This document shows positions 29,084 to 41,249 of a stretch of 64,000 bases of DNA, piece by piece (within the stretch, counting starts at the first letter, position 1; every line of letters begins with the position of its first letter). The notes beneath the pieces are model-generated. The model made no database searches. It saw only the letters and a program-made list of their open reading frames with translations, and was not told the origin of the DNA. The translations under genes and the position numbers were made by a program. The stretch comes from Agromyces cavernae (lineage in GTDB: Bacteria; Actinomycetota; Actinomycetes; Actinomycetales; Microbacteriaceae), in contig NZ_JAJNMP010000002.1 of assembly GCF_021044935.1 (NCBI RefSeq), positions 186,001 through 250,000 of the forward strand, given 5' to 3'.

Positions 29084-29824
29084 TCACCCTCCGCCGATCA
29101 ACTCCTCGAGGCCGGCGATCGGGTCGTAGAGCCCCGCGTCGAGGATCCACGTCTGCAGCTGCTTGTCGAACCCGGTGATGACGGCCAGGCCGACGACCAC
29201 GAAGATGGCGCCGATCACCTTGCGGAACCAGCCGCCGGGGTTCGCGAGCCAGCCGAGGCGGCGCACGAGGCCGCGGCCGAGCAGGGCGATGAGGAGCAGC
29301 ATCGCGGCGAGCCCGACCGCGTACGCGATGACGTAGATCACTCCTTCGGCGAATGAGACGGGCAGCACTGCGGCGATGATGAGCGCGTAGGTGGGGCTGC
29401 AGCTCGAGAACACGGGCCCGAGGGCTGCGCCGGTGAGGATGTCACCCATCGTGCTCTGCCGCGACACCGAACGGTCGAGGAACTCGCCGCTGCGTGCCTG
29501 CAGCCGGAGCGCTGTCGAGAGGCGATCCCATAACGCGGGGAAGAGCAGGTCCACGCCGAGCAGGATGATGATGCCGCCCGACACGAGTTGCCACACCTGC
29601 GGCGGCACACCGAGCAGCGCAGTGGTGGCCTTGAGCAGCAGGGTGAAGGCCACCACGCTCACCGCGAGGGACGCGGCGATGACGTACGGCCGCCGGCGTG
29701 CCCGGCGCTCGTCGCCGCCCCCCACGATCGCACCGCCCACGATGACGGGCAGGAGCGGCAACACGCACGGTGCCGCGACGGTCAGGACGCCCGCGGCGAG
29801 GCTCAGTACGAGGGAGGGAGTCAT
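29084..29824 (-). CDS. ccdA: CcdA-type thiol-disulfide transmembrane transporter
   Basis: Membrane protein of the CcdA/DsbD family, 246 residues, six predicted membrane segments, passing reducing equivalents from cytosolic thioredoxin to the extracytoplasmic side. The two conserved cysteines are Cys20 in VAAPCVLPLLP and Cys142 in GPVFSSCSPTYA. It lies 52 bases downstream of a thioredoxin-like lipoprotein gene on the same strand, which is the natural electron acceptor. No cytochrome c maturation genes are nearby, so a general thiol-redox or stress role is as likely as heme delivery. The 152 bases before it (28932-29083) show no gene. Confidence 0.88.
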   Translation of the reverse strand: MTPSLVLSLAAGVLTVAAPCVLPLLPVIVGGAIVGGGDERRARRRPYVIAASLAVSVVAFTLLLKATTALLGVPPQVWQLVSGGIIILLGVDLLFPALWDRLSTALRLQARSGEFLDRSVSRQSTMGDILTGAALGPVFSSCSPTYALIIAAVLPVSFAEGVIYVIAYAVGLAAMLLLIALLGRGLVRRLGWLANPGGWFRKVIGAIFVVVGLAVITGFDKQLQTWILDAGLYDPIAGLEELIGGG

Positions 29825-29876
29825 GGGCGCGTGGCGCTTCGGTCGGTATCGGCGGTCGAGTTGCGGCGCGTCAGGT

Positions 29877-30377
29877 TCACGGGATCGCCGCGACGAGCGA
29901 CGCGATCGACGGGTCGTCGTAGAGCACGGTGCGCGAGATCAGCTCTCCCCGGTCGTCGACGAACACGACGGTGGTCTGCAGTGTCACGCCGTACTTCTGG
30001 CGCAGGTCGGTGCGGTTGTCGTAGTCGACCTTGAACACCGTGAGGCCGTCGGGCGCGCCCTGGGTGCGGAGCTCCTCGTCGAGCTGGCGGCACTTCGGAC
30101 ACCAGGTCGCGTGGAAGAACAGAACCTTCGGCCCGGCGGTGGACTCGATCGCCCCATCGGTGTAATCGAGATAGGCGCCCTCCGAGGGCGCGAGCGGCGC
30201 GACGGATGAACCGGCCTCCGCGTCCGCGCGTGGTGTCGGGATCTCCGGGGTCGCGCTCGGAGTGCTGATCCGATCGCTCGAACCGGGGGGCGCGGCATCC
30301 GTCGGTTGGGTCGCACACCCGGTGAGTGCGAGTGCGGATGCGAGCAGCGCGGCCGCGCCCCTTCTGCGTGCGTGCAT
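29877..30377 (-). CDS. Thioredoxin-like lipoprotein
   Basis: Membrane-anchored thioredoxin-fold protein, 166 residues. The lipoprotein signal RRRGAAALLASALALTGC puts the lipid on Cys21. A Pro/Ser-rich linker (about 22-62) precedes the domain. The active site is WCPKC (Cys93, Cys96), and the cis-proline region is TLQTTVVFVDD, where Thr replaces the usual Pro. It is probably kept reduced by CcdA encoded next. A GCGGGG/CCCCGC hairpin (30395-30411) lies in the leader just upstream of the start. Confidence 0.87.
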   Translation of the reverse strand: MHARRRGAAALLASALALTGCATQPTDAAPPGSSDRISTPSATPEIPTPRADAEAGSSVAPLAPSEGAYLDYTDGAIESTAGPKVLFFHATWCPKCRQLDEELRTQGAPDGLTVFKVDYDNRTDLRQKYGVTLQTTVVFVDDRGELISRTVLYDDPSIASLVAAIP

Positions 30378-30567
30378 CGTGCCTCGTCCGATCTGCGGGG
30401 ATCCGCCCCGCTCACACCCACGCTAACCAGGGCGCCGAGGGCCGGGTGATGCGAGAGATTACGGATTGCTGACGTCGGGAACCCCTCACGAACCGGAGGC
30501 AGCGCCCGTCATGGGATCGTAAGGATCTCCCGCCCGGCGCGCGACCCGAGCGCGGCATGGTGGAGTG

Positions 30568-31365
30568 ATGGTGGACATCGTGGGCGTGATCGGCGGCACC
30601 GGCGTGGGCGAGCTCGTCGTCGGCGGCGAGATGCGCGACATTCCGACGCCATTCGGTTCGGTGATCGTCACCGTGGGCGAGCTCGCCGGACGGCGCGTCG
30701 CGTTCCTGCCCCGGCACGGCGCAGGCCACACGATCGCGCCCCATCTCATCAACGCACGCGCCAACCTGTGGGCGCTCGCGAGCCTGGGTGTGCGCGCAGT
30801 GGTCTCGACAGCCGCCGTCGGGTCGCTCAGGCCGGGGTTTCCGACCGAGTCGTTCGCGCTCGCCGACCAGCTCGTCGACCGCACGGCCGGGCGGGCCGAC
30901 ACGTTCTTCGACGGCGGACTCGTGCGGCATCTGCCGTTCGCCGAGCCGTTCTGCCCGGTGCTGCGATCGCTCGCGATCGATGTACTGCCGGATGCCGCGC
31001 CGCGGGCGACCGTCGCCGTGATCCAAGGGCCGAGGTTCTCGACCGCGGCCGAGTCGCGCATCTTCCGCGAGTCGGGCATCGACCTCGTGAACATGTCGCT
31101 GTGCCCAGAAGTCGCGCTCGCCGCCGAGATCGGGATCGGCACCGTCACGATGTGCATCGTCACAGACACCGACAGCGGCACCTCCGCCGGCGATCCCGAC
31201 GCGGTCACCGCCGAGCTCGTCTTCCGCCGGCTCGCCGCGGTGAAGCCGCGCATCGTGGCGGCGATCGAGGGCATCGTCGCGGCTGTGCCGAGCCGGTACA
31301 TGCCGCGGCCACTCATGGATGACGAGGCGGTCGCGGCGCTCCGAGCGCTGCGGGTGGCGCGATGA
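30568..31365 (+). CDS. MTA/purine nucleoside phosphorylase family
   Basis: S-methyl-5'-thioadenosine phosphorylase-like enzyme (PNP/MTAP superfamily), 265 residues, cytosolic. Family motifs: GVIGGTGVGEL (phosphate loop), FLPRHGAGHTIAPHLINARAN, STAAVGSL, VAVIQGPRFSTAAE and VNMSLCPEVALAAE. The first methionine is uncertain: GTG 30565 and ATG 30568 are adjacent after a GGAG. It is coupled to the epimerase gene by ATGA at 31362. The GPRF-x-T-A-A-E block matches MTAP more than plain PNP. MTA salvage is the default call; 6-oxopurine nucleosides are possible. Confidence 0.85.
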   Translation: MVDIVGVIGGTGVGELVVGGEMRDIPTPFGSVIVTVGELAGRRVAFLPRHGAGHTIAPHLINARANLWALASLGVRAVVSTAAVGSLRPGFPTESFALADQLVDRTAGRADTFFDGGLVRHLPFAEPFCPVLRSLAIDVLPDAAPRATVAVIQGPRFSTAAESRIFRESGIDLVNMSLCPEVALAAEIGIGTVTMCIVTDTDSGTSAGDPDAVTAELVFRRLAAVKPRIVAAIEGIVAAVPSRYMPRPLMDDEAVAALRALRVAR

Positions 31366-32402
31366 CCCTGCTCGTCACGGGCGGCGCCGGGTTCATCGGC
31401 GGAACGATCGTGAAGCTCGCAGTGGCGCGCGGCCACGACGTGCGGGTTCTCGATTCGCTGCGCGACGACGTGCACCGCGTGGAACCGAAGCCGATCGACG
31501 GTGTCCAGTTCCTGCGCGGCGACATCCGTGATCCCGACACGCTCGACCGGGCGCTGCGGGGCGTCGAGATCGTCTGCCACCAGGCCGCGAAGGTCGGCCT
31601 CGGCGTCGATCTCTCGGACGCACCCGACTACGCCTCGACGAACGTCACCGGTACTGCGGAGCTCGTCGCCGCGATGGGCCGAGCCGGCGTGATTCGGCTC
31701 GTGCTCGCGTCATCGATGGTCGTGTACGGCGAGGGCGCGTATCGCGACGCGATCGGACGCCGTCGCCGACCGGCCGCCCGCGCTTCACGCGACCTCGACG
31801 CCGGCCGGTTCGAGCCGCGCGACCCCGACTCCGGCGAACCGCTCACGCCCGACCTCATCGACGAGGACGACGCGCTCGACCCCCGCAACATCTACGCGCT
31901 CACGAAGCTCGCGCAGGAGCACCTCGCGGCGACGTGGGCCCGCACGGCCGCCGGAACGGCGGCGATGCTGCGCTACCACAACGTCTACGGCCCCGGTATG
32001 CCGCGCAACACCCCGTATGCCGGGGTTGCAGCCCTGTTCCGCTCGGCGATCGAGCGGGGCGAGGGGCCGCGCGTCTTCGAAGACGGCCGGCAGCGGCGCG
32101 ACTTCGTGCACGTCACGGATGTCGCGAGCGCGAACCTCGCGGCGATCGATTGGCTGCCCGCGCAGGCACCCGGCACCGTGCGTGCCTTCAACGTTGGATC
32201 CGGCACGGTCACCACGGTCGGCGAGGTCGCCGAAGGCCTCGCGCGGGTCATGCGCGGGCCGGCGCCAGTCGTCACCGGCGAGTACCGCCTCGGCGACGTG
32301 CGGCACATCACCGCGTCCTCCGCACGTGCCCGCGCGGAACTCGGCTGGCAGGCAGCGGTGCCCCTCGAGGACGGGCTCCGCGAGTTCGCCACCGCTCGCT
32401 GA
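31362..32402 (+). CDS. NAD-dependent epimerase/dehydratase
   Basis: Short-chain dehydrogenase of the extended (nucleotide-sugar epimerase) class, 346 residues. NAD-binding GGAGFIGG is at residues 7-14, followed by HQAAKVGLG, the catalytic serine region LASSMVVYGEG and the YALTKLAQE motif holding the active-site Tyr and Lys. Substrate-side NVYGPGMPRN and RDFVHVTDVA are typical of UDP-hexose epimerases. A proline/arginine-rich insert lies at about residues 128-160. It ends 23 bases before the convergent kinase gene. It may make a sugar for the GT2/DUF2064 operon beyond the two-component genes. Confidence 0.87.
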   Translation: MTLLVTGGAGFIGGTIVKLAVARGHDVRVLDSLRDDVHRVEPKPIDGVQFLRGDIRDPDTLDRALRGVEIVCHQAAKVGLGVDLSDAPDYASTNVTGTAELVAAMGRAGVIRLVLASSMVVYGEGAYRDAIGRRRRPAARASRDLDAGRFEPRDPDSGEPLTPDLIDEDDALDPRNIYALTKLAQEHLAATWARTAAGTAAMLRYHNVYGPGMPRNTPYAGVAALFRSAIERGEGPRVFEDGRQRRDFVHVTDVASANLAAIDWLPAQAPGTVRAFNVGSGTVTTVGEVAEGLARVMRGPAPVVTGEYRLGDVRHITASSARARAELGWQAAVPLEDGLREFATAR

Positions 32403-32425
32403 CCGTCGCGGCACCGGCCGACGCC

Positions 32426-33583
32426 TCAGGCGCTGAGCGACGCATCGCGTGGGAGCAGCAGGTCGAAGCGGCATCCGCCGGGTACGTTGCGCACCGCGAC
32501 CTCGCCGCGGTGCGCGCTCATGATGCCCTTGACGATCGCGAGGCCGAGCCCGGCGCCGCTCGAGGAGCCCTCGCGCATCGACGGCGTGCGGGCCTTCGAC
32601 CCGCGCCACGCCGGCTCGAACACGCGGTCGAGGTCGTCCTCGTCGATTCCGCCGCCCGCGTCGATCACCGACACCATCGCCCGGTCCTCGACGAGGTCGA
32701 CGGCGACCGTGATCGGCGAGCCCTCGGGCGTGTGCTGGATCGCGTTCATGAGCAGGTTCCCGATCGCGCGGGAGAGCTCCCGGGGGTCGGCCGTCACGAT
32801 GAGGTCCTGCGCGAGCGGTGCCTCGACGCGGATGTCGCGACCGCGGGACGCGGGTCGCAGGTCGGCGACCGTGTCGCTCACGACGTCGTAGAGCGACACC
32901 TCCTTGAGCGAGAGGTGCAGCGCGTCGGAGTCGATCTTCGACAGCTCGAAGAGGTCGTCGACCATGCTCGAGAGCTGGTCGACTCGGATGCGCATCTGGC
33001 GGTGGTACCGGGCGGGGTCTGGCGCGATGCCGTCCTCGAGGGCCTCGGCCATCGCCCGGATGCCGGCGAGCGGGGTGCGCAGGTCGTGCGAGATCCACGC
33101 GACGAGCTCGCGGCGGGAGCTCTCGATGCGCTGCTCGCGCTCGCGGGACTCGGCGAGCTTCGCGCTCGTCGCGACGAGTTCGTCGGCGAGGGCATTGAGC
33201 TCGCTGTTCGAGTACCGGCCGGCCGACTCGAGACGCTCGCCCGCGCCGATCCGCCGCGCCGCGAGCGACAGCGCACGTGAGTTGCGCGCGACGAGCCAGC
33301 CGAGCACGGCGACGAGCACGAGCGACACGACGCCCGAGATGGCCGCGACGGCCACCGCGACCGTGAGGTCGTGTTCGGAGAGGTACATCGCGTTGGCGAC
33401 GCCGACCATGCTCGCGACGACCGACGCGATCGCGGCGAGCACGAGCACGCAGACCTGCACGATGAGCGATGCACGCCGCAGCAGCAGCAGCGCGACGACA
33501 CCGAGCCCGCCGACGATCGCGGTGGTGCCGAGCGTGATCGAGGCGACCGCGACAAGATCAGACCACGGCATTCGGAACACCAT
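32426..33583 (-). CDS. EnvZ/BaeS-type sensor histidine kinase
   Basis: Membrane histidine kinase, 385 residues. There are two or three hydrophobic segments in residues 7-100, a HAMP-like stretch (about 100-145), the phosphoacceptor His166 in VAWISHDLRTPL, and an ATPase domain with NLLMNAIQHTPEG, VIDAGGGIDEDD and SGAGLGLAIVKGI. Start ATG 33583 overlaps the regulator gene by 26 bases; ATG 33571 is an alternative. It pairs with the OmpR-type regulator upstream in the same operon. The signal is unknown. Confidence 0.9.
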   Translation of the reverse strand: MVFRMPWSDLVAVASITLGTTAIVGGLGVVALLLLRRASLIVQVCVLVLAAIASVVASMVGVANAMYLSEHDLTVAVAVAAISGVVSLVLVAVLGWLVARNSRALSLAARRIGAGERLESAGRYSNSELNALADELVATSAKLAESREREQRIESSRRELVAWISHDLRTPLAGIRAMAEALEDGIAPDPARYHRQMRIRVDQLSSMVDDLFELSKIDSDALHLSLKEVSLYDVVSDTVADLRPASRGRDIRVEAPLAQDLIVTADPRELSRAIGNLLMNAIQHTPEGSPITVAVDLVEDRAMVSVIDAGGGIDEDDLDRVFEPAWRGSKARTPSMREGSSSGAGLGLAIVKGIMSAHRGEVAVRNVPGGCRFDLLLPRDASLSA

Positions 33584-34307
33584 CCATCGTGAATCGGTAG
33601 CCGACGCCCCAGACGGTCGTCAGCATGGTCGGCGAGCGTGGGTCGCGTTCGATCTTCTCCCGCAGCCGGCGCACGTGCACCGTGACGGTTGAGAGGTCGC
33701 CGTATGTCCAACCCCAGACCGTTCGCAGCAGGTCCTCGCGGCTGAAGACCTGGTTCGGGTGCTTGAGGAGGAATTCGAACAGGTCGAACTCACGGACCGT
33801 GAGCGACAGCTCGACGCCCGCCCGGGCCGCAATGCGAGCGGACGGGTCGAGGCGGAACTCGCCGTACTCGAGCACGGACTCGGGTGTGAACTCTCCGATC
33901 GAGCGGCGCAGCACCGACTGCACGCGCAGCACGAGCTCGCGCGGGGAGAACGGCTTCGCGAGATAGTCGTCTGCACCCGCCTCGAGGCCCGCGATGCGCT
34001 CATCCTCTGAGCCGAGGGCCGTCAGCAGGATGACCGGGGTCGACATGCGTTCGCGCAGCCGCCGGAACACCTCGAGGCCGTCGATGCCGGGCAACATCCG
34101 GTCGAGCACGATGAGATCCGGCGCGAAACGCTCCGCGGCCTGCAGAGCCGCGAAACCGTCACCGGCCTCCTCGACGACGAAGCCGCCGGCGCGCAGGTAA
34201 CTCGACGCGACCTCGGCGACCGTCGGGTCGTCGTCGACGAGCAGCACTCGCCGGCCGACGAGGTCTTCGTTGCCGGTCGAAGATGGAGCAGCGGCGGACA
34301 CGTTCAC
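33558..34307 (-). CDS. OmpR/PhoB-type response regulator
   Basis: DNA-binding response regulator, 249 residues, starting at GTG 34307. The receiver domain (about 20-135) has the acidic cluster LLVDDDP, phosphoacceptor Asp69 in LIVLDRMLPG, LLTALGSE and LAKPFSPREL. The winged helix (about 155-245) has LTVREFDLFEFLLKHPNQVF and VTVHVRRLREKIE. It overlaps the kinase gene and is divergent from the GT2 operon across 106 bases, which makes that operon a candidate target. Confidence 0.92.
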   Translation of the reverse strand: MNVSAAAPSSTGNEDLVGRRVLLVDDDPTVAEVASSYLRAGGFVVEEAGDGFAALQAAERFAPDLIVLDRMLPGIDGLEVFRRLRERMSTPVILLTALGSEDERIAGLEAGADDYLAKPFSPRELVLRVQSVLRRSIGEFTPESVLEYGEFRLDPSARIAARAGVELSLTVREFDLFEFLLKHPNQVFSREDLLRTVWGWTYGDLSTVTVHVRRLREKIERDPRSPTMLTTVWGVGYRFTMDGVPNAVV

Positions 34308-34413
34308 AGACTACGACCGCTTCGTCGGCGCGGCTCCTGACCCGGGGCATCCGTTCGCGTTCCGTAAGACTTGCCCGGCGCCCCGCGCCGCCGGGGTGAC
34401 CTAACGTCGAACC

Positions 34414-35082
34414 ATGCCGGTAGTCCGCGTCGACCTGGTGCTTCCGTGCCTCGATGAGGAACGGGCATTGCCGTGGGTGCTCGGCCGGCTGCCGGTCGGA
34501 GTCCGGGCTATCGTCGTCGACAACGGCTGCACCGATCGTTCGGCGGAGATCGCGGGGGAGTTCGGCGCGCTCGTCGTCACCGAGGCGCGGCGCGGCTTCG
34601 GCGCGGCCGCCCATGCGGGCCTCGAAGCGGCGGATGCCCCGATCGTCGCGTTCTGCGACGCCGACGCGTCGCTCGATCCCGCCGATCTCCCGCGCCTCGT
34701 GACGCTCCTCGAGCATGGCGGTGCCGATCTCGTGCTCGGGAGGCGCCGGCCGACGACGCGCGACGCGTGGCCGCTGCACGCCCGTGTGGCGAACCGGGTC
34801 CTCGCCGCCCGGATGTCGCAACGAACCGGCACCCGGATGTATGACCTCGGCCCGCTCAGGGTTGCGCGCACCGCTGACCTGCGGGCGCTGGGTCTCCGCG
34901 ACCGGCGCAGCGGGTACCCGCTCGAGATGGTGCTGCGCGCCGCGGCCGCCGGATGGTCGATTCGCGAGGTCGACGTCTCCTATGCGCCGCGAGCGGGCCG
35001 ATCGAAGGTCACGGGCACCCTGCGGGGCACGGTCACGGCGGTCGCCGACATGTCGCGGGTCTTCGCGGAGGTGTCGCGATGA
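34414..35082 (+). CDS. Family 2 glycosyltransferase
   Basis: GT-A-fold glycosyltransferase, 222 residues, cytosolic face. DLVLPCLDEERALPWVL is the nucleotide-sugar-binding strand, followed by VVDNGCTDRSAEIA, CDADASLDPADLP (the metal-binding D-x-D) and VLGRRRPTTRDAW. The C-terminus lacks membrane anchors. It is short, close to the TIGR04283-like rSAM/selenodomain-associated transferase 2 group, and the next gene is of the associated transferase 1 (DUF2064) group. The two are coupled by ATGA (35079). Donor and acceptor are unknown. Confidence 0.85.
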   Translation: MPVVRVDLVLPCLDEERALPWVLGRLPVGVRAIVVDNGCTDRSAEIAGEFGALVVTEARRGFGAAAHAGLEAADAPIVAFCDADASLDPADLPRLVTLLEHGGADLVLGRRRPTTRDAWPLHARVANRVLAARMSQRTGTRMYDLGPLRVARTADLRALGLRDRRSGYPLEMVLRAAAAGWSIREVDVSYAPRAGRSKVTGTLRGTVTAVADMSRVFAEVSR

Positions 35083-35726
35083 CCGTGGTCGTCGTCATCG
35101 CGAAGGAGTGCCTGCCGGGGCGGGTGAAGACGCGCCTGAGTCCGCCGTTCTCGCCGGCTGAGGCCGCGCGGCTCGCGCAAGCAAGCCTCCACGACACCTT
35201 CGCGACCGTCGCGTCGCTGCCGGCCTCGCGGCGGGTGCTCTACTTCGACGGATCGCACGTGCCGGCCGCTGCACTCAGCTCAGGGTTCGAGGTGCTGGCG
35301 CAGGTCGGCGGCGGGCTCGACGTACGTCTCGCACACCTCTTCGACCTGCTTGCGGAGCCGACCCTGCTCGTCGGCATGGACACCCCGCAGTTGGGCGCCA
35401 CCGATGTCGCCGCGGCCCTCGAGTCGCTCACACAAGGCGGCGACCACGAGGTGGACTGCTGGTTCGGCCCAGCGGCCGACGGCGGGTTCTGGGCGCTCGG
35501 CATGCGAGACCCGCGCGGCGACCTCGTCCGCGGGGTGCCGATGTCGCGTGACGACACGGGGGCGCGGCAGCTTCACCGGCTCGAGGAGGCGGGTCTCTCG
35601 GTGGGGACGCTGCCCGTGCTCACCGACCTCGACACCGTGGCCGATGCATTCCTCATCGCCGCGACCGCACCCGACTCGCGGTTCGCGCGCGAGTTCCGCC
35701 GGCTCACGGTGGGGCAACCGTCATGA
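35079..35726 (+). CDS. DUF2064/TIGR04282-like transferase
   Basis: Nucleotidyl- or glycosyltransferase-like protein (CofC/DUF2064 family), 215 residues. The start TVVVVIAKECLPGRVKTRLSP is the family hallmark (K-x-R-L-S-P contacts nucleotide), with LLVGMDTPQLGATDV and WFGPAADGGFWALGM. It is linked by four-base overlaps to the GT2 gene and to a 29-codon ORF downstream. The pair GT2 + DUF2064 is a known uncharacterised couple, often near radical SAM genes; one lies 5 kb downstream here. Confidence 0.85.
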   Translation: MTVVVVIAKECLPGRVKTRLSPPFSPAEAARLAQASLHDTFATVASLPASRRVLYFDGSHVPAAALSSGFEVLAQVGGGLDVRLAHLFDLLAEPTLLVGMDTPQLGATDVAAALESLTQGGDHEVDCWFGPAADGGFWALGMRDPRGDLVRGVPMSRDDTGARQLHRLEEAGLSVGTLPVLTDLDTVADAFLIAATAPDSRFAREFRRLTVGQPS

Positions 35727-35812
35727 ACGTGCCGGCCGTCGCCCATTGGGAGGCGTCGCGGCGTCAGTTCGTGCGGGCGGTGCCGTCGTCGGCCGCACCA
35801 GCCGAGCCATGA
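35723..35812 (+). CDS. 29-codon micro-ORF coupled on both sides
   Basis: Encodes MNVPAVAHWEASRRQFVRAV followed by a short tail ending AAPAEP. It starts in an ATGA overlap with the DUF2064 gene and ends in an ATGA overlap with the membrane-protein gene. It resembles no family I know. Related clusters usually carry a methyltransferase here, so it may be the trimmed end of a deleted gene that kept the reading-frame junctions, or a genuine microprotein. Confidence 0.45.
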   Translation: MNVPAVAHWEASRRQFVRAVPSSAAPAEP

Positions 35813-37188
35813 GGCGGGGCATGACCACCGAGCCGGTGCCGGCGAGCCCGACGCCGGCCGGACGGCCGGGGCGGAGCCCCGCGCCGTGGATCGGGCTTGG
35901 GATCGCCGTCGCGCTCGTCGTGCTCGCGATCACCATTCCGGTGCTGTTCGGCCAGAGCGTGCACGTCAAGTCGTTCCCGCCGCTGCACGCGGAGTGGATG
36001 CCTCGACTCGGACCCGGCACACTGCCGGCTCTCGTACTCGCGGTGCTTGCGGCGGTCTCCGGCGTCGACGCGGCCGCGCGGGCGCCGTGGCGAGCACTCC
36101 TCGCCGGGAGCTTCGTCGTCGGGGTGGCCTGGCTCGCAAGCCTCGCGACCGTCGACGGACTCGACGGGATCGGGGTCATCCTCGACACGCAGTACGAGTA
36201 CCTCGACACGGCGCGCGCCGTCACCGACTTCCCCGCGACGTTGCGCGAGTACGTGTCGCGCATCCCGCTCGACTCCGACGGCAACTGGCCCGTGCACCTC
36301 GCCGGCCACCCGCCTGGCGCCCTGCTCTTCTTCGTCGTTCTCGTTCGACTCGGGCTCGGCGACGGTCTCGCCGCCGGATTGGTCGTCCTGCTGGTGGCGG
36401 CCACGACGCCCGTCGCGGTGCTCCTTCTCCTCCGCCGGCTCGGCGCGGAGCAGTTGGCGCGGCGGGCGGCGCCGTTCCTCGTGATGGGTTCGGCGGCGAT
36501 CTGGATGGCGGTCTCGGCCGACGGCATGTTCGGTGCGGTCGCGGCGTGGGGGCTCTGCGCGCTCGCATTCTCGGCGACCGCGGCGACGTGGCGTGCGACT
36601 GCGGGGTGGGGAATCGGGGCGGGGCTGCTGCTCGGCTACTGCGTCATGCTCTCGTACGGGCTCCCACTCCTCGGCATCCTCGCCATCGCCGTGCTCCTCC
36701 TCGCCCGCAACTGGCGGCCCTTGCCCTGGGTGGTCGCGGCAGCCGTCACCGTGGTGCTCACGTTCGCGGTGTTCGGCTTCGTATGGTGGGAGGCGTACCC
36801 GGTGCTCGTCGAGCGGTACTGGGACGGCGTCGCGAGCCGCCGCCCGTTCACCTACTGGGCCTGGGGCAACCTCGGTGCCCTCGCCGTGAGCGCGGGGCCC
36901 ATGGTCGGTGCGGCGGTCGCGATGGCCGTGCAGCGCGGCATTCGGCCGGGCATGCTGCTCACCGGGGAACGAGTCATCGTGCTGATCACCCTCGCCGGCA
37001 CCCTCACGGTGCTCGTCGCCGATCTCTCGCAGATGAGCAAGGCCGAGGTCGAGCGCATCTGGCTGCCGTTCGTTCCCTGGATGCTGCTCGGCACGGCGCT
37101 GCTCTCCGAACGCTGGCGACGCATCGGATTCGCAGGGCAGCTCGGATTCGCGCTCGTCGTGCAGCACCTGCTCTTCACCGGGTGGTGA
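35809..37188 (+). CDS. Polytopic membrane protein, possible lipid-linked glycosyltransferase
   Basis: 459 residues, about ten or eleven hydrophobic segments, Pro-rich N-terminus. A large extracytoplasmic loop after the third or fourth segment (about residues 130-170) contains DTQYEYLDTARAV, DSDGNWPVHLAGHPPGALL; charged residues in such a first loop are typical of GT-C glycosyltransferases (ArnT/mannosyltransferase type). I cannot point to a definite catalytic Asp. WPFVPWMLLGTALLSERWRR near the C-terminus is also GT-C-like (the actual start is LPFVPW). Position after GT2 and DUF2064 suggests the transfer of a lipid-linked sugar. ATG 35821 is an alternative start. Confidence 0.7.
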   Translation: MRRGMTTEPVPASPTPAGRPGRSPAPWIGLGIAVALVVLAITIPVLFGQSVHVKSFPPLHAEWMPRLGPGTLPALVLAVLAAVSGVDAAARAPWRALLAGSFVVGVAWLASLATVDGLDGIGVILDTQYEYLDTARAVTDFPATLREYVSRIPLDSDGNWPVHLAGHPPGALLFFVVLVRLGLGDGLAAGLVVLLVAATTPVAVLLLLRRLGAEQLARRAAPFLVMGSAAIWMAVSADGMFGAVAAWGLCALAFSATAATWRATAGWGIGAGLLLGYCVMLSYGLPLLGILAIAVLLLARNWRPLPWVVAAAVTVVLTFAVFGFVWWEAYPVLVERYWDGVASRRPFTYWAWGNLGALAVSAGPMVGAAVAMAVQRGIRPGMLLTGERVIVLITLAGTLTVLVADLSQMSKAEVERIWLPFVPWMLLGTALLSERWRRIGFAGQLGFALVVQHLLFTGW

Positions 37189-37284: not shown

Positions 37285-37821
37285 ATGACGATTGCGATCC
37301 ACGATCCGCCGGCAGGCCCGCTGGCGTCGGGGCTGTCGCGAGGGCTACTGGCTGCCGTGCGCATCGGCGTGGCAGTGATGTGGATCCAGAACGTGGCGTG
37401 GAAGCGTCCGCCCGACTTCGGCCGGGCGGACGACAACGGCCTCTTCTTCTGGGCCGGCCGAGCGGTCGAGTTCCCGGTGTTCCCGCCGTACTCGGCGTTC
37501 GTCGAGGTGCTCGTCCTGCCCCACATCGAGGTCGCCGGATGGATCATCCTCCTGGTCGAGGGCGGTTTGGGGGCCTTCTTGCTCATCGGCCTCGCGACGC
37601 GCTTCTGGGCGGCGGTCGGGTTCGCGCAGACGCTCGCGATCACCGTTTCCGTGCTGAACGCGCCGCACGAGTGGCACTGGTCGTACTACCTGATGCTCCT
37701 CGCGCACCTCGCGATCTTCGCGACGGCGGCGGGACGCTGGTTCGGACTCGACGGAGTGCTGCGCCCGGCCTGGTCACGATCATCCGGGTCACTGGCGCGA
37801 GCGATGGTGCGGCTCTCGTGA
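37285..37821 (+). CDS. DoxD/DoxX-like membrane protein
   Basis: 178 residues, four hydrophobic segments, resembling the DoxD-like subunit of thiosulfate:quinone oxidoreductase and the wider DoxX family. Marks of the family are the first helix with RIGVAVMWIQNVAWKRPPDF, a polar stretch LFFWAGRAVEFPVFPPYSAF between helices 1 and 2, VEGGLGAFLLIGLATRFWA and NAPHEWHWSYYLML. GGAGAGGCC precedes ATG 37285. It is the first gene of a five-gene coupled operon. Thiosulfate oxidation is not shown by sequence; DoxX proteins are often of unknown redox role. Confidence 0.75.
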   Translation: MTIAIHDPPAGPLASGLSRGLLAAVRIGVAVMWIQNVAWKRPPDFGRADDNGLFFWAGRAVEFPVFPPYSAFVEVLVLPHIEVAGWIILLVEGGLGAFLLIGLATRFWAAVGFAQTLAITVSVLNAPHEWHWSYYLMLLAHLAIFATAAGRWFGLDGVLRPAWSRSSGSLARAMVRLS

Positions 37822-38246
37822 ACGGCGAAGCTCTCGTGTACGAAGAACGCGCACGCTACGACCGCGCGGCGATCGCCCTGGGCACCGGAAGCCTCGTCGC
37901 GTCGGTGTTCGTGTTCGGCGCGGCTGCGCCCACGCCGATCGACTTCGCGCACGTCGGCCTCGGTGGCGCGATCGTGCTCGCCGTGCTCGGCGTCGTCGGA
38001 ATCCTGGGCGGCGCGCTGCACCGCGGCATCCTGACCCTGATAGCAGGCGGCGGGCTCACGATCGCCGCGCTCGTGCAGCTCGCCACGCTGCAGCTCTCAC
38101 CACGGCTGCTCGGCGGCGACGCGTCGTTGATGTCGCTCCTCGGTGCGTTCGGCATCGGTCTGCTCGCCGTGGGCGTCGCCCGCCGCTCCGCCGCATCCAC
38201 GCCGTCGGGCACGACCTCGACTCTCGACAGAAGGGGAGGACCCTGA
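37818..38246 (+). CDS. Small membrane protein, unknown
   Basis: 142 residues with four hydrophobic segments and a hydrophilic C-terminal tail. GTG 37818 overlaps the stop of the DoxD-like gene. Gly/Ala-rich helices and no polar motif point to a structural or partner role for the DoxD-like protein, perhaps as a second subunit. It is linked to the flavoprotein gene by a TGATG junction at 38244-38248. I do not recognise a named family. Confidence 0.65.
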   Translation: MNGEALVYEERARYDRAAIALGTGSLVASVFVFGAAAPTPIDFAHVGLGGAIVLAVLGVVGILGGALHRGILTLIAGGGLTIAALVQLATLQLSPRLLGGDASLMSLLGAFGIGLLAVGVARRSAASTPSGTTSTLDRRGGP

Positions 38247-39415
38247 TGGATCTCCACGACCGACTCGATCCGGTGCTCGTGATCGCGTCCGAGCACGCCT
38301 ACGACGTCGACCAGCGGGGCCGGTTCCCCGACGAGGCGGTGGCCGCGCTCCGCGATTCAGGCCTGCTGGGTCTCACCCTGCCTTCGGAGCACGGCGGACT
38401 CGGCGGTGGCCCACAGGACTTCGTCGACGTGATGAGCGCCGTCGCGGGCGCGTGCGGGTCGACCGCGATGATCTACCTGATGCATGTGTCCGCTTCGATG
38501 CCTCTCGCGACTGCCACCCCACCCGGAATCCCCGGCCTCCTCGGAGACCTCGCATCAGGCCGAGTCCTCGCGTCGCTCGCCTTGTCCGAGGCGGGATCCC
38601 GCTCGCACTTCTGGGCACCGGTCTCGCAACCCGCTGACGACGGCACCGGACTGCACGTCACGGCGAAGAAGAGCTGGGTCACGTCCGCAGGACATGCCGA
38701 CTTGTACGTCATCTCGACGAAGACGCCGGATGCCTCGGGTGTCGATCTCTACGCGATCCCGGCCGACACCCCAGGCGTTGCCGTCGACTCCCTGTTCTCG
38801 GGGATGGGACTGCGGGGCAACGCCTCGAGCCCGATGACCTTCGATGTCAAGCTCCCCGTGCATCTGAGACTCGGAGACAGCCGAGCGGGTACCGACCTCA
38901 TGCTCGGCGTGGTGCTGCCCTGGTTCAACCTCGGCAACTCCGCAGTCTCGCTCGGGCTGAGCCGCGCTGCCGTGGATGCCGCCATCCGGCACACCGCAGG
39001 TGCGCGGTTCGAGCATCTCGATCAGAGCCTGTCGGCGCTGCCCACGATCCGCGCCCAGCTCGCCAAGATGTCGATCGACCTCGCGACCGCATCTGCATAC
39101 CTCGACAGGGCGGCGAGCCGCGTGGCCGAGACCGCAGACGACACGCCGCTGTTCGTGCTGGGCAGCAAGGCCGCTGCGAACGACACCGCGCTGCGCATCA
39201 CCGACGCGGCCATGCGCGTATGCGGCGGCGCGGCGTTCTCACAGCACCTGCAGCTCGACCGGTACTTCCGCGATGCTCGTGCCGGCCACGTGATGGCGCC
39301 GACCGCAGACGCGCTCTACGAGTTCTACGGCCGGGCGATCACCGGCCGGCCGCTCTTCGACCCACCGGCCGAAACCGCACCGGCAACGATGGCCGGCTCT
39401 GGAGTGGCGCCGTGA
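38246..39415 (+). CDS. Acyl-CoA-dehydrogenase-like flavoprotein
   Basis: FAD enzyme of the acyl-CoA dehydrogenase fold, 389 residues. N-terminal helices include LGLTLPSEHGGLGGGPQDF; the middle beta domain has LALSEAGSRSHFW and TAKKSWVTSAGHADLYVIST; the C-terminal helices end in DRYFRDARAGHVMAPTADAL. The classical C-terminal catalytic Glu loop (YEGT type) is not clear: the sequence there is TADALYEFYGR. It may therefore be a flavin oxidase or monooxygenase-like relative rather than a beta-oxidation enzyme. No thiolase or enoyl-CoA hydratase gene is nearby, which fits that view. Confidence 0.8.
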   Translation: MDLHDRLDPVLVIASEHAYDVDQRGRFPDEAVAALRDSGLLGLTLPSEHGGLGGGPQDFVDVMSAVAGACGSTAMIYLMHVSASMPLATATPPGIPGLLGDLASGRVLASLALSEAGSRSHFWAPVSQPADDGTGLHVTAKKSWVTSAGHADLYVISTKTPDASGVDLYAIPADTPGVAVDSLFSGMGLRGNASSPMTFDVKLPVHLRLGDSRAGTDLMLGVVLPWFNLGNSAVSLGLSRAAVDAAIRHTAGARFEHLDQSLSALPTIRAQLAKMSIDLATASAYLDRAASRVAETADDTPLFVLGSKAAANDTALRITDAAMRVCGGAAFSQHLQLDRYFRDARAGHVMAPTADALYEFYGRAITGRPLFDPPAETAPATMAGSGVAP

Positions 39416-40236
39416 TCCCCGCCTCGACCGTCCCGCGCCTGATCGGATCGGTCGCGTATTCCCCGAACGTCGTGACCGTATGGGAGGGCATGCGCGCCTA
39501 TTTCACCGGCACGGACACCCCGATCGACTTCGTGCTGTTCTCGAACTACGGCCGGCTCGTCGACGCGCTCATCGGGGGAACGGTCGACCTGGCGTGGAAC
39601 ACGAACCTCGCCTACGTGCGCACGCTCCTCCAGACGAAAGGCGCCTGCCGGGCGCTTGCGTCGCGTGACACGGACGTCGTCTTCCAGAGCGTGTTCGTGT
39701 CGCGCGCCGGCACCGGGTTCGACGGGCTCGAGGCGGTGCGGGGGCGCCGCCTGGCGCTCGGTTCACGGGACTCCGCGCAGGCGGCGATCCTTCCCTTGCA
39801 GTACCTGCACGAGGCCGGCATCGGCGACGACGACGTCACGCTCATGCGCATCGACAGCGACGTCGGCAAGCACGGCGACACCGGTCGCAGCGAGCTCGAC
39901 GCCCTGCGCGCGGTGCTCGACGACCGGGCGGATGCCGCCGCCATCGGCGTCAACACCTGGCAGGCCATCACCCGAGGCGAGATCATGACCGGTGCGATCG
40001 AGTCGTTCTGGATGTCGCCCGAGTACAGTCACTGCACCTTCACCGCTCTGCCGGCGCTGTCGACTGAGTGGGCCGAGGCATGGCTCGCAGACCTGTTCGC
40101 GATGGACTGGGAGAACCCGGATCATCGCGCCATCCTCGAGTTGGAGGGGCTCCGCCGCTGGGTGCCGCCGAACCTCGACGGTTACGGCAGCCTCATCGCC
40201 GCCGTCGCAGAACAAGGAATTCCCGACCGATGGTGA
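39412..40236 (+). CDS. PhnD/SsuA-like binding protein without signal peptide
   Basis: Periplasmic-binding-protein fold of the phosphonate/phosphite (PhnD) type, 274 residues. Typical features are VAYSPNVVTVWEGMRAYF, LVDALIGGTVDLAWNTNLAYV (ligand-binding turn), RRLALGSRDSAQAAILPL and DAAAIGVNTWQAI. There is no signal peptide or lipobox, and no ABC permease or ATPase in the operon, so it is probably cytosolic. GTG 39412 overlaps the flavoprotein stop. It could be a ligand sensor or a substrate-delivery protein for the enzymes on either side. It overlaps the radical SAM gene by seven bases. Confidence 0.8.
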   Translation: MIPASTVPRLIGSVAYSPNVVTVWEGMRAYFTGTDTPIDFVLFSNYGRLVDALIGGTVDLAWNTNLAYVRTLLQTKGACRALASRDTDVVFQSVFVSRAGTGFDGLEAVRGRRLALGSRDSAQAAILPLQYLHEAGIGDDDVTLMRIDSDVGKHGDTGRSELDALRAVLDDRADAAAIGVNTWQAITRGEIMTGAIESFWMSPEYSHCTFTALPALSTEWAEAWLADLFAMDWENPDHRAILELEGLRRWVPPNLDGYGSLIAAVAEQGIPDRW

Positions 40237-41249
40237 ACCACGGCCTCGTGCTCGATCTCATCGATCGGCTCGGTCGCATACCAGCCGGGTCGACCGTCAC
40301 GCTCGACGTCATGTCAGGCACTGCCGATGCCGGGGAGATCGCCGATAACATCGACATGATCGCGACCTGGTGCCGGGCGAGCGGCAACGCACTCGTCGAG
40401 TCGCGGCACGACGCGGTCGTCGTACGCCACGGTCGCAGCCCCGACACCCTTGCCGGTCTCCACCCCGACCAGGTCCCGGGCACTCGACTCTGGATGTACA
40501 CGAACTTCGATTGCAACCTGCACTGCGACTACTGCTGCGTGAGTTCCTCACCTCAGGCCGACCGCCGGGCGCTGGGCGCCGACCGCGTCGCACGGCTTGC
40601 CGAGGAGGCGGAACCGGCCGGCGTACGTCAGCTGATCCTCACGGGCGGCGAGCCCTTCCTCTTGCCCGACATCGACGAACTCGTCGCCTCCTGCACCGCA
40701 CACCTGCCGACGACGCTGCTGACGAACGGCATGCTCTTCCGTGGAGCTCGTCTCGAGCGGCTCCGCCGGATGGACCGCGAGCGACTCACCCTGCAGATCA
40801 GCCTCGACTCCGCGACACCCGAGCAGCACGACGCGCACCGCGGACCTCACTCATGGGAGCGCGCGGTCGCCGGCATCGGGCTGGCGCTCGACGAGGGCTT
40901 CGACGTGAAGGTCGCGGCCACGCTCCCGGCCGAGCAGACGCACGAGGTCGCCCCGTTCAAGGCGTTCCTCGGAACGCTCGGCATCCGCCCCGAAAACCAG
41001 GTGATCCGCGCGGTCGCTCACCAGGGTGCAGCTCACGACGGTATCGAGCTCACGGTCGAATCCCTCATCCCGGAGGTCACGATCACCGCGGACGGGGTGT
41101 GGTGGCATCCGGTCTCCGCGACCGATGCGTCGCAGTTCGTACGGCGGGAGATCTTCCCGCTCGCCGACGCCATCGCCGACGTGCGGCGGCGTTTCGTGCG
41201 ACACCGCGAGGCGGCCGATCGGGCCGCCGACTGGTTCCCCTGCTCCTGA
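40230..41249 (+). CDS. Radical SAM protein with apparent TusA-like N-terminal domain
   Basis: Radical SAM enzyme, 339 residues. The cluster motif is Cys95-x3-Cys99-x2-Cys102 in CNLHCDYC, followed by GGE (139-141) in ILTGGEP, TLLTNG and LQISLDSATPEQHDAHRG. Residues about 1-70 look like a TusA/SirA-type fold (PAGSTVTLDVMSG, DNIDMIATWCRASGNALVES, AVVVRHGR), but the sulfur-carrying Cys-Pro of TusA near the N-terminus is missing. No SPASM-type Cys-rich C-terminus is seen; the chain ends in WFPCS. It is the last gene of the five-gene operon. Substrate unknown; neighbours hint at sulfur or phosphonate chemistry. Confidence 0.85.
   Translation: MVNHGLVLDLIDRLGRIPAGSTVTLDVMSGTADAGEIADNIDMIATWCRASGNALVESRHDAVVVRHGRSPDTLAGLHPDQVPGTRLWMYTNFDCNLHCDYCCVSSSPQADRRALGADRVARLAEEAEPAGVRQLILTGGEPFLLPDIDELVASCTAHLPTTLLTNGMLFRGARLERLRRMDRERLTLQISLDSATPEQHDAHRGPHSWERAVAGIGLALDEGFDVKVAATLPAEQTHEVAPFKAFLGTLGIRPENQVIRAVAHQGAAHDGIELTVESLIPEVTITADGVWWHPVSATDASQFVRREIFPLADAIADVRRRFVRHREAADRAADWFPCS

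What the first reader, a model, noticed from the sequence alone, without database searches (positions are those of the whole stretch)
37285..41249. Five-gene coupled operon: DoxD-like, membrane protein, ACAD-like, cytosolic PhnD-like, TusA-like/radical SAM
Seen: all four junctions overlap (GTGA, TGATG, GTGA, 7-base overlap). The gene set mixes a DoxD-type redox membrane protein, a flavoprotein lacking a clear beta-oxidation Glu, a binding protein without export signal or transporter, and a radical SAM enzyme. Known: DoxD links to thiosulfate:quinone chemistry, PhnD to phosphonates, TusA to sulfur relay. Inference: a pathway that senses or channels a sulfur- or phosphorus-containing small molecule and modifies it by radical chemistry. 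I know of no described system with this content.
Basis: partly seen in the sequence, partly recalled or inferred. Interest (0 to 1): 0.82.

Follow-up and report, generated by a model that had tools for sequence, protein, structure and literature searches.

The report
Radical-enzyme cassette for sulfur-sugar caps
Five overlapping genes, among them one for a radical enzyme, sit beside genes resembling those that make methylthioxylose sugar caps on cell surfaces, and in a survey of 394 related genomes all 15 with that radical enzyme also carried a marker gene of such caps, so the set likely builds or modifies them and offers a testable role for the little-studied tuberculosis genes Rv1678 to Rv1681.

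Summary
The five overlapping genes are real and coupled as described. They are not an unknown assortment: genes 2-5 match the NCBIfam families named after M. tuberculosis Rv1678, Rv1679 (FadE16), Rv1680 and Rv1681, all above cut-off; my term searches showed no functional study of them. The new point is context. The genes just upstream (30565-37188) look like the methylthioxylose (MTX) cap pathway: MTA-phosphorylase-like, GalE-like epimerase, GT2, DUF2064 and a GT-C-like membrane protein. Both sets are interleaved in distant actinobacteria. In 394 class genomes, 15 of 15 with the radical SAM family have the MtxS-like GT2, against 148 of 379 without that family. In four loci of other classes a TusA-like/R2-type oxidase stands in place of the TusA-like/radical SAM protein. 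In two genomes of one genus the FadE16-SBP pair was not found and the radical SAM operon has an ABC importer instead. Conclusion: a conserved accessory cassette for MTX-type caps, probably radical tailoring of the sugar's C5 substituent. Pathway link about 0.65; exact chemistry about 0.2.

The parts
37285..37821 (+). DoxD-like membrane protein
   Evidence: PF04173 36.8 bits, cut-off 22.7; TQO equivalog NF041179 22.2 of 300, not met; fused to the gene-2 family in L113 and L007
37818..38246 (+). Rv1678-family small membrane protein
   Evidence: NF049986 88.1 bits, cut-off 50
38246..39415 (+). Rv1679/FadE16-family acyl-CoA-dehydrogenase-fold flavoprotein without the usual Glu
   Evidence: NF049984 656 bits, cut-off 600; Ala351 at that place in 35 of 35
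39412..40236 (+). Rv1680-family cytosolic substrate-binding-protein-like protein
   Evidence: NF049985 476 bits, cut-off 400; model pLDDT 90.9 nearest to PhnD1, PtxB, ArrX, AioX, HtxB; K153-H154-G155-D156 and H207-C208 identical in 37 of 37 near-full-length rows, of 40
40230..41249 (+). Rv1681-family radical SAM enzyme with TusA-like N-terminal domain
   Evidence: NF049973 519 bits, cut-off 380; CNLHCDYC at residues 94-101 counted from GTG 40233; Cys337 in 93 percent of 29 rows; model nearest to BlsE, SkfB, SuiB, MoaA
34414..35082 (+). GT2 family, MtxS (Rv0539)-like polyprenyl-phosphate sugar transferase
   Evidence: PF00535; best NCBIfam dolichyl-phosphate hexose transferase 81 of 375 bits; alignment A3
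35079..35726 (+). DUF2064 / CofC-like nucleotidyltransferase (Rv0540-like)
   Evidence: PF09837 76.2 bits; TIGR04282 120.6, cut-off 134
35821..37188 (+). GT-C-like membrane protein, MtxT (Rv0541c)-like; start estimated
   Evidence: no Pfam or NCBIfam family; one of 120 listed homologues is named methylthioxylose transferase; alignments A1, A2
30565..31365 (+). MTA-phosphorylase-like (Rv0535-like)
   Evidence: PF01048 111.5 bits; MTAP equivalogs 233 and 223.3, below cut-offs 306 and 274.85
31362..32402 (+). NAD-dependent epimerase, GalE-like (Rv0536-like)
   Evidence: PF01370 160 bits; galE 139.7, cut-off 262.3
32426..34307 (-). two-component pair (histidine kinase 32426-33583, response regulator 33558-34307)
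   Evidence: similar pairs recur in MTX-type loci

Best explanation
The five genes are a conserved accessory cassette that likely serves the methylthioxylose (MTX)-type envelope-cap pathway whose homologues lie directly upstream, and its radical SAM enzyme would carry out radical chemistry on the C5 substituent of the cap sugar or of its 5'-substituted adenosine precursor. Shown: gene order and families, physical linkage in many loci, co-occurrence in the class sample, loci in which a TusA-like R2-type oxidase stands where the TusA-like radical SAM protein would be, and two genomes in which the FadE16-SBP pair was not found while the operon has an ABC importer. Inferred: the upstream enzymes split a 5'-substituted adenosine (MTAP-like), invert C3 (epimerase), activate the sugar (DUF2064), load it on polyprenyl phosphate (GT2) and transfer it outside (GT-C), after the scheme known for MTX in M. 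tuberculosis. Inferred with less weight: FadE16 makes or processes a small, probably sulfur-containing anion; the cytosolic SBP holds it and does the job that an importer does elsewhere; the TusA-like domain docks the acceptor; the radical step attaches or rewrites the group at C5; the DoxD/Rv1678 pair links the step to quinone or thiol electrons.
For: Physical linkage: whole sets contiguous or interleaved in the window, L001, L020, L022, L024, L060, L103, L105, L109, and in L004 without FadE16; in L133 and L134 the radical SAM and DoxD genes lie in the MTX-type set while the FadE16-SBP pair is elsewhere in those genomes. Among the 28 named loci, 7 hold at least one of epimerase, GT2, DUF2064 or MtxT within flanks of at most 8 kb. 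Co-occurrence: 15 of 15 radical SAM-family genomes have the MtxS-like GT2 at E<=1e-60, against 148 of 379 others (one-sided Fisher 1.2e-6); inside the window's own family 3 of 3 against 1 of 18 (p 0.003). Distance 20 kb or less on one contig in 6 of 15. Of 10 genomes with the divergent FadE16-SBP pair, 7 have the GT2 at 241 bits or more. Radical-engine swap: TusA-R2 fusions beside FadE16-SBP in L062, L063, L066, L071 (R2lox model E 2.6e-9, 5e-4, 2e-4, 4e-5, all below its cut-off; TusA by profile). Importer swap: L113 operon of TusA-radical SAM, DoxD-Rv1678 fusion (58.2 of 50), SBP of TIGR04553 (326 of 250) with a signal, ABC ATPase, PhnE-family permease; L111 has the same SBP family (278 of 250); no FadE16-SBP match in those two genomes. 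Structural neighbours of the radical SAM model include enzymes recalled to act on nucleotides or sugars (BlsE, MoaA, viperin, AbmM, DesII), next to peptide-modifying ones (SkfB, SuiB). MTX from MTA, MtxS = Rv0539, MtxT = Rv0541c: passages of PMC11127046 and PMC8780516.
Against: MTX-type sets are common without the cassette: 145 of 379 cassette-less genomes have the MtxT homologue, and 12 such loci showed no cassette gene beyond two weak matches of 21 and 47 bits, so the cassette is not needed for a basic cap. In 9 of 15 genomes the cassette is on another contig or far away. By the MtxT profile co-occurrence is weaker (11 of 15 against 145 of 379, p 0.0075; four genomes lack a hit). The genome searches scored only the best 4 or 7 candidates per genome, so presence elsewhere may be undercounted. 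3 of 10 divergent FadE16-SBP genomes lack a high-scoring GT2. An antibody to MTX reacts with M. intracellulare and M. gordonae (PMC6258851 Table 1), species I could not place for the cassette. TusA-less radical SAM versions exist (L133, L027). The MTAP alignment shows no cassette-specific change. The co-occurrence tests do not correct fully for relatedness. The two importer genomes are of one genus. No product, substrate or activity was measured.
Confidence: 0.6

Rival explanations
1. The cassette is an independent sulfur-, selenium- or phosphorus-oxyanion assimilation or detoxification pathway that only happens to sit near cap genes.
For: SBP fold of PhnD/PtxB/ArrX/AioX type; next-best NCBIfam is the putative selenate SBP family TIGR04553; the L113 operon has a PhnD-family SBP, an ATPase and a PhnE-family permease; FadE16 resembles SfnB and a desulfinase below cut-off; cassette far from the cap genes or on another contig in 9 of 15 genomes.
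Against: 15 of 15 co-occurrence with the MtxS-like GT2, and interleaving in several families and classes.
Confidence: 0.2
2. The cassette oxidises or reduces the cap: FadE16 acts as a flavin S-oxygenase and the membrane proteins as redox partners, giving the methylsulfoxyxylose (MSX) form seen in M. tuberculosis LAM.
For: MSX is reported beside MTX (PMC8531672); FadE16 scores to SfnB and DszC models, below cut-offs.
Against: It leaves the radical SAM enzyme, the R2-type stand-in and the SBP unexplained; sulfoxide may form chemically.
Confidence: 0.1
3. A cofactor pathway (the M. tuberculosis gene is also called moeX; second-best match MoaA), with the CofC-like DUF2064 protein as nucleotidyltransferase.
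For: MoaA models score 67 bits, cut-offs 284 and 325.
Against: MoaA cut-offs not met; MTAP-, GT2- and GT-C-like partners do not fit a molybdenum cofactor; none of the other four genes is a Mo-cofactor gene.
Confidence: 0.04

Closest known systems
M. tuberculosis Rv1678-Rv1681 (NCBIfam NF049986, NF049984, NF049985, NF049973)
   Same: All four families matched above cut-off, in the order of the locus numbers.
   Different: In M. tuberculosis, by locus number (recalled), these genes lie far from the MTX genes Rv0535-Rv0541c; here they are contiguous with the MTX-like set. DoxD-like and Rv1678-family proteins are separate here and fused in L113 and L007.
Methylthioxylose cap pathway of M. tuberculosis LAM (MtxS Rv0539, MtxT Rv0541c, five-gene cluster)
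   Same: Homologues of all five kinds (MTAP, epimerase, GT2, DUF2064, GT-C) upstream; the composition of the published cluster is recalled.
   Different: The five-gene cluster mentioned in PMC5911930 does not, as far as I recall, include the cassette; the acceptor glycan of this organism is unknown.
Arsenosugar pathway around ArsS
   Same: Recalled analogy: a radical SAM product that is a 5'-substituted adenosine, then phosphorylase, DUF2064 and GT2 proteins; the DUF2064 protein scores 120.6 to TIGR04282 (cut-off 134).
   Different: ArsS model TIGR04167 39.5 bits of 300; no arsenic methyltransferase among the ten upstream genes scanned.
PhnD/PtxB/ArrX/AioX oxyanion-binding proteins
   Different: Cytosolic, no importer gene among the five, a DS-type loop instead of the STSG-type loop, KHGD and HC invariant.

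Membership tests
Rv1678-Rv1681 families (NCBIfam) | Scores over the curated cut-offs of all four models | tested here: met
   88.1/50, 656.1/600, 476.5/400, 519.4/380
MTX-type cap cluster | MTAP-, epimerase-, GT2-, DUF2064- and GT-C-like genes together | tested here: met
   window 30565-37188; identity by homology, below the curated equivalog cut-offs of MTAP, GalE and TIGR04282; for the GT-C by one named homologue of 120
MTX-type cap cluster | A methylthioxylose cap is made | not testable with these tools
   no glycan data
MTA phosphorylase (TIGR01694, PRK07823) | Curated cut-off | tested here: not met
   223.3 of 274.85 and 233 of 306
Phosphonate importer SBP (PhnD, TIGR03431) | Cut-off, export signal, neighbouring ABC genes | tested here: not met
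   32.7 of 261.1; starts at the first strand; none of the five genes is a transporter gene; next two genes downstream are an esterase and an MFS protein
Acyl-CoA dehydrogenase (beta-oxidation) | Catalytic Glu at the MCAD-type position (recalled) | tested here: not met
   Ala in 35 of 35
TusA sulfur carrier | CPxP cysteine | tested here: not met
   missing in the window protein
TusA-like fold | Profile similarity to TusA | tested here: inconclusive
   direct E 0.12; by way of TusA-R2 fusions E 4e-6 and 2e-9
Thiosulfate:quinone oxidoreductase DoxD | NF041179 cut-off | tested here: not met
   22.2 of 300; the broader Pfam DoxD cut-off is met
MoaA | TIGR02666 cut-off | tested here: not met
   66.6 of 284.05
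ArsS arsenosugar radical SAM | TIGR04167 cut-off | tested here: not met
   39.5 of 300

The most novel reading that the evidence does not exclude
An unrecognised class of envelope cap sugars: a radical enzyme (5'-deoxyadenosyl radical, or an R2-type dimetal oxidase in other actinobacterial classes), guided by a degenerate TusA domain, installs a group derived from a small oxyanion (sulfur, selenium, phosphorus or arsenic) at C5 of a pentofuranose, which MTX-type enzymes then carry to the cell surface. It would be a cell-wall counterpart of arsenosugar synthesis, present in the tuberculosis clade.
Probability: 0.15. Interest if true: 0.85.

Novelty: new variant of a known kind. Interest (0 to 1): 0.62.

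Why it matters
Rv1678-Rv1681 are catalogued families for which my searches showed no functional study. Tying them to the MTX cap, the epitope of a urine-test antibody for tuberculosis (PMC6258851, passages), gives a concrete hypothesis. If the exchange between a radical SAM enzyme and an R2-type oxidase on one docking domain is real, it points to a reaction that starts with a radical on an unreactive bond, which narrows the chemistry.

Tried and rejected
Phosphonate metabolism proper: PhnD cut-off not met by the window SBP and no phosphonate enzyme among the genes scanned; the PhnE-family permease of L113 keeps the idea alive for that variant. Canonical thiosulfate:quinone oxidoreductase, MoaA and ArsS: cut-offs not met. 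'Cassette needed for MTX itself': rejected as the main reading because MTX-type sets are complete without it in L144, L145, L148, L152, L155 and because of the antibody reactivity of M. intracellulare and M. gordonae; that M. smegmatis has the MTX genes without the epitope (PMC5911930) is explained there by missing mannose caps. A cassette-specific MTAP pocket: no difference seen in 16 aligned proteins. An alternative conserved base in FadE16: the only Glu kept in 95 percent or more of 35 rows is E115, role unknown. My simple gene callers mis-called antisense frames in GC-rich DNA and were replaced by profile searches. VIA rows for the radical SAM model covered residues 70-338 for the most part, so the TusA-like part was barely tested by fold.

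Papers: PMC11127046, PMC10503756, PMC8780516, PMC3229680, PMC8531672, PMC8081860, PMC6258851 and PMC5911930 were seen as passages found by search terms; Angala 2017 (PMC5357196) is not held and is known through citations and recall. That no held paper joined these genes to MTX rests on the term searches (40 of 316 listed), seen as listings.
Full report
1. Observation. The five genes lie at 37285-41249 on the + strand with the overlaps described. Pfam and NCBIfam give DoxD-like, Rv1678-family membrane protein, Rv1679/FadE16-family, Rv1680-family SBP-like and Rv1681-family radical SAM; the last four are over curated cut-offs. The closest named SBP relatives are from Agromyces. Downstream, on the other strand, follow an esterase and an MFS protein.

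2. Conservation. A scan of named genomes with the radical SAM protein returned 29 loci, of which 28 are family members, nearly all actinobacterial by title; one (L024, 49 percent identical) is labelled Candidatus Aeolococcus. SBP accompanies the radical SAM gene in 28 of 28, FadE16 in 23, DoxD in 23. In the unnamed-genome sample of the class, 15 of 394 carry the radical SAM family at 260 bits or more, the next genome scoring 87. In the 11 over the cut-off all five kinds of gene lie together; in the 4 below it the FadE16-SBP pair was not found.

3. The neighbourhood. Upstream of the five genes the window encodes an MTA-phosphorylase-like protein, an epimerase, a two-component pair on the other strand, a GT2, a DUF2064 protein and a GT-C-like membrane protein. 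This is the gene set that I recall for MTX biosynthesis in M. tuberculosis (Rv0535, Rv0536, Rv0539, Rv0540, Rv0541c). Passages seen say that MTX starts from MTA and uses a decaprenyl-phosphate donor and a GT-C enzyme (PMC11127046), that MtxS is Rv0539 and MtxT is Rv0541c (PMC8780516) and that a five-gene cluster is dedicated to it (PMC5911930). One homologue of the window's GT-C protein is named methylthioxylose transferase, 1 of 120 listed.

4. Linkage test. The two sets are contiguous or interleaved in L020, L022, L024, L060, L103, L105, L109 and others, with different gene orders, so the arrangement is hardly one frozen block. In the same 394 genomes the MtxS-like GT2 (E<=1e-60; best 7 candidates scored per genome) is present in 163; it is present in 15 of 15 radical SAM-family genomes and in 148 of 379 others (one-sided Fisher 1.2e-6). 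Within the window's family it is 3 of 3 against 1 of 18 (p 0.003). The MtxT profile (best 4 candidates scored) gives 11 of 15 against 145 of 379 (p 0.0075); the four misses (G606, G465, G300, G353) were confirmed with all candidates scored, yet they have GT2, DUF2064 and epimerase together. The distance from radical SAM to GT2 is 20 kb or less on one contig in 6 of 15 (G000, G150, G311, G331, G379, G453). These tests ignore relatedness except for the family-level one.

5. Stand-ins. In ten loci of other classes a FadE16-SBP pair (214 to 317 bits to my SBP profile) occurs. In four of them (L062, L063, L066, L071) the neighbour has a TusA-like N-terminus and an R2-like oxidase part (R2lox model E 2.6e-9 to 5e-4, all below its cut-off; L062 TusA model E 4e-4; profile of the four to E. 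coli TusA E 2e-9). The radical SAM N-terminal domain matches the N-terminus of these fusions (E 4e-6; control stretch E 0.78), and the model shows helix-strand-helix-strand-strand there. I read this as one docking domain with two radical engines. Seven of the ten genomes have the MtxS-like GT2 at 241 bits or more; G092, G100 and G124 do not. In G436 and G657, of one genus, the radical SAM gene scores 351 and 341 bits. In G657 (L113) it is followed by a DoxD-Rv1678 fusion (58.2 of 50), an SBP of TIGR04553 (326 of 250) whose signal I read by eye, an ABC ATPase (PhnC model 197 of 266, not met) and a permease over the PhnE cut-off (280 of 216.7); the SBP of G436 (L111) meets TIGR04553 too. Their MTX-type genes lie elsewhere in the genome. 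This suggests that FadE16 and the cytosolic SBP take the place of import.

6. Proteins. FadE16 carries VMAPT where 3pfd has the YE of the ACAD motif, invariant A351, so ordinary alpha,beta-dehydrogenation is unlikely. The SBP keeps the oxyanion-SBP fold but has KHGD and HC invariant. The radical SAM model is nearest to BlsE, SkfB, SuiB, MoaA, PqqE, viperin, AbmM and EpeE, within about 3 Z units of each other, so fold gives no single function.

7. Species. The 100 percent match and the contig length identify G150 as M. lacus, where the cassette lies about 18 kb from the MTX-type GT2.

8. Verdict. The pathway link is well supported; the reaction is not. I commit to radical tailoring of the C5 substituent of MTX-type cap sugars. 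The cassette is optional: twelve cassette-less MTX-type loci show no cassette gene beyond two weak matches.

Noticed in passing
window 32426-34307: A two-component pair on the opposite strand inside the MTX-like cluster; similar pairs recur in MTX-type loci (for example L103, L125, L126, L139, L146), so the cap pathway may have its own regulator.
   Followed up: partly
window 29087-30377: A CcdA/DsbD-like protein and a thioredoxin-like protein lie next to the MTAP-like gene; by eye, exported thioredoxin-like and CcdA-like genes also lie near the L113 operon and in L061.
   Followed up: no
L067:1924-10467: A variant cluster: MTAP-like, SAM methyltransferase, SPASM-type radical SAM, GT2, DUF2064, DoxD, FadE16, SBP and a MetE-like protein.
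   Followed up: partly
L062:5726-6991, L063:9874-11208, L066:9067-10344, L071:338-1615: TusA-like domain fused to an R2-like ligand-binding-oxidase-like protein; no NCBIfam cut-off met.
   Followed up: partly
L133:7870-8718 and L027:4017-4859: Shorter radical SAM relatives without the TusA-like domain, with the motif YHCNxACxYC, next to DoxD-like genes.
   Followed up: no
L004:6252-9008 and L005:6262-9002: Cassettes that lack FadE16 between the Rv1678-family and SBP genes.
   Followed up: no
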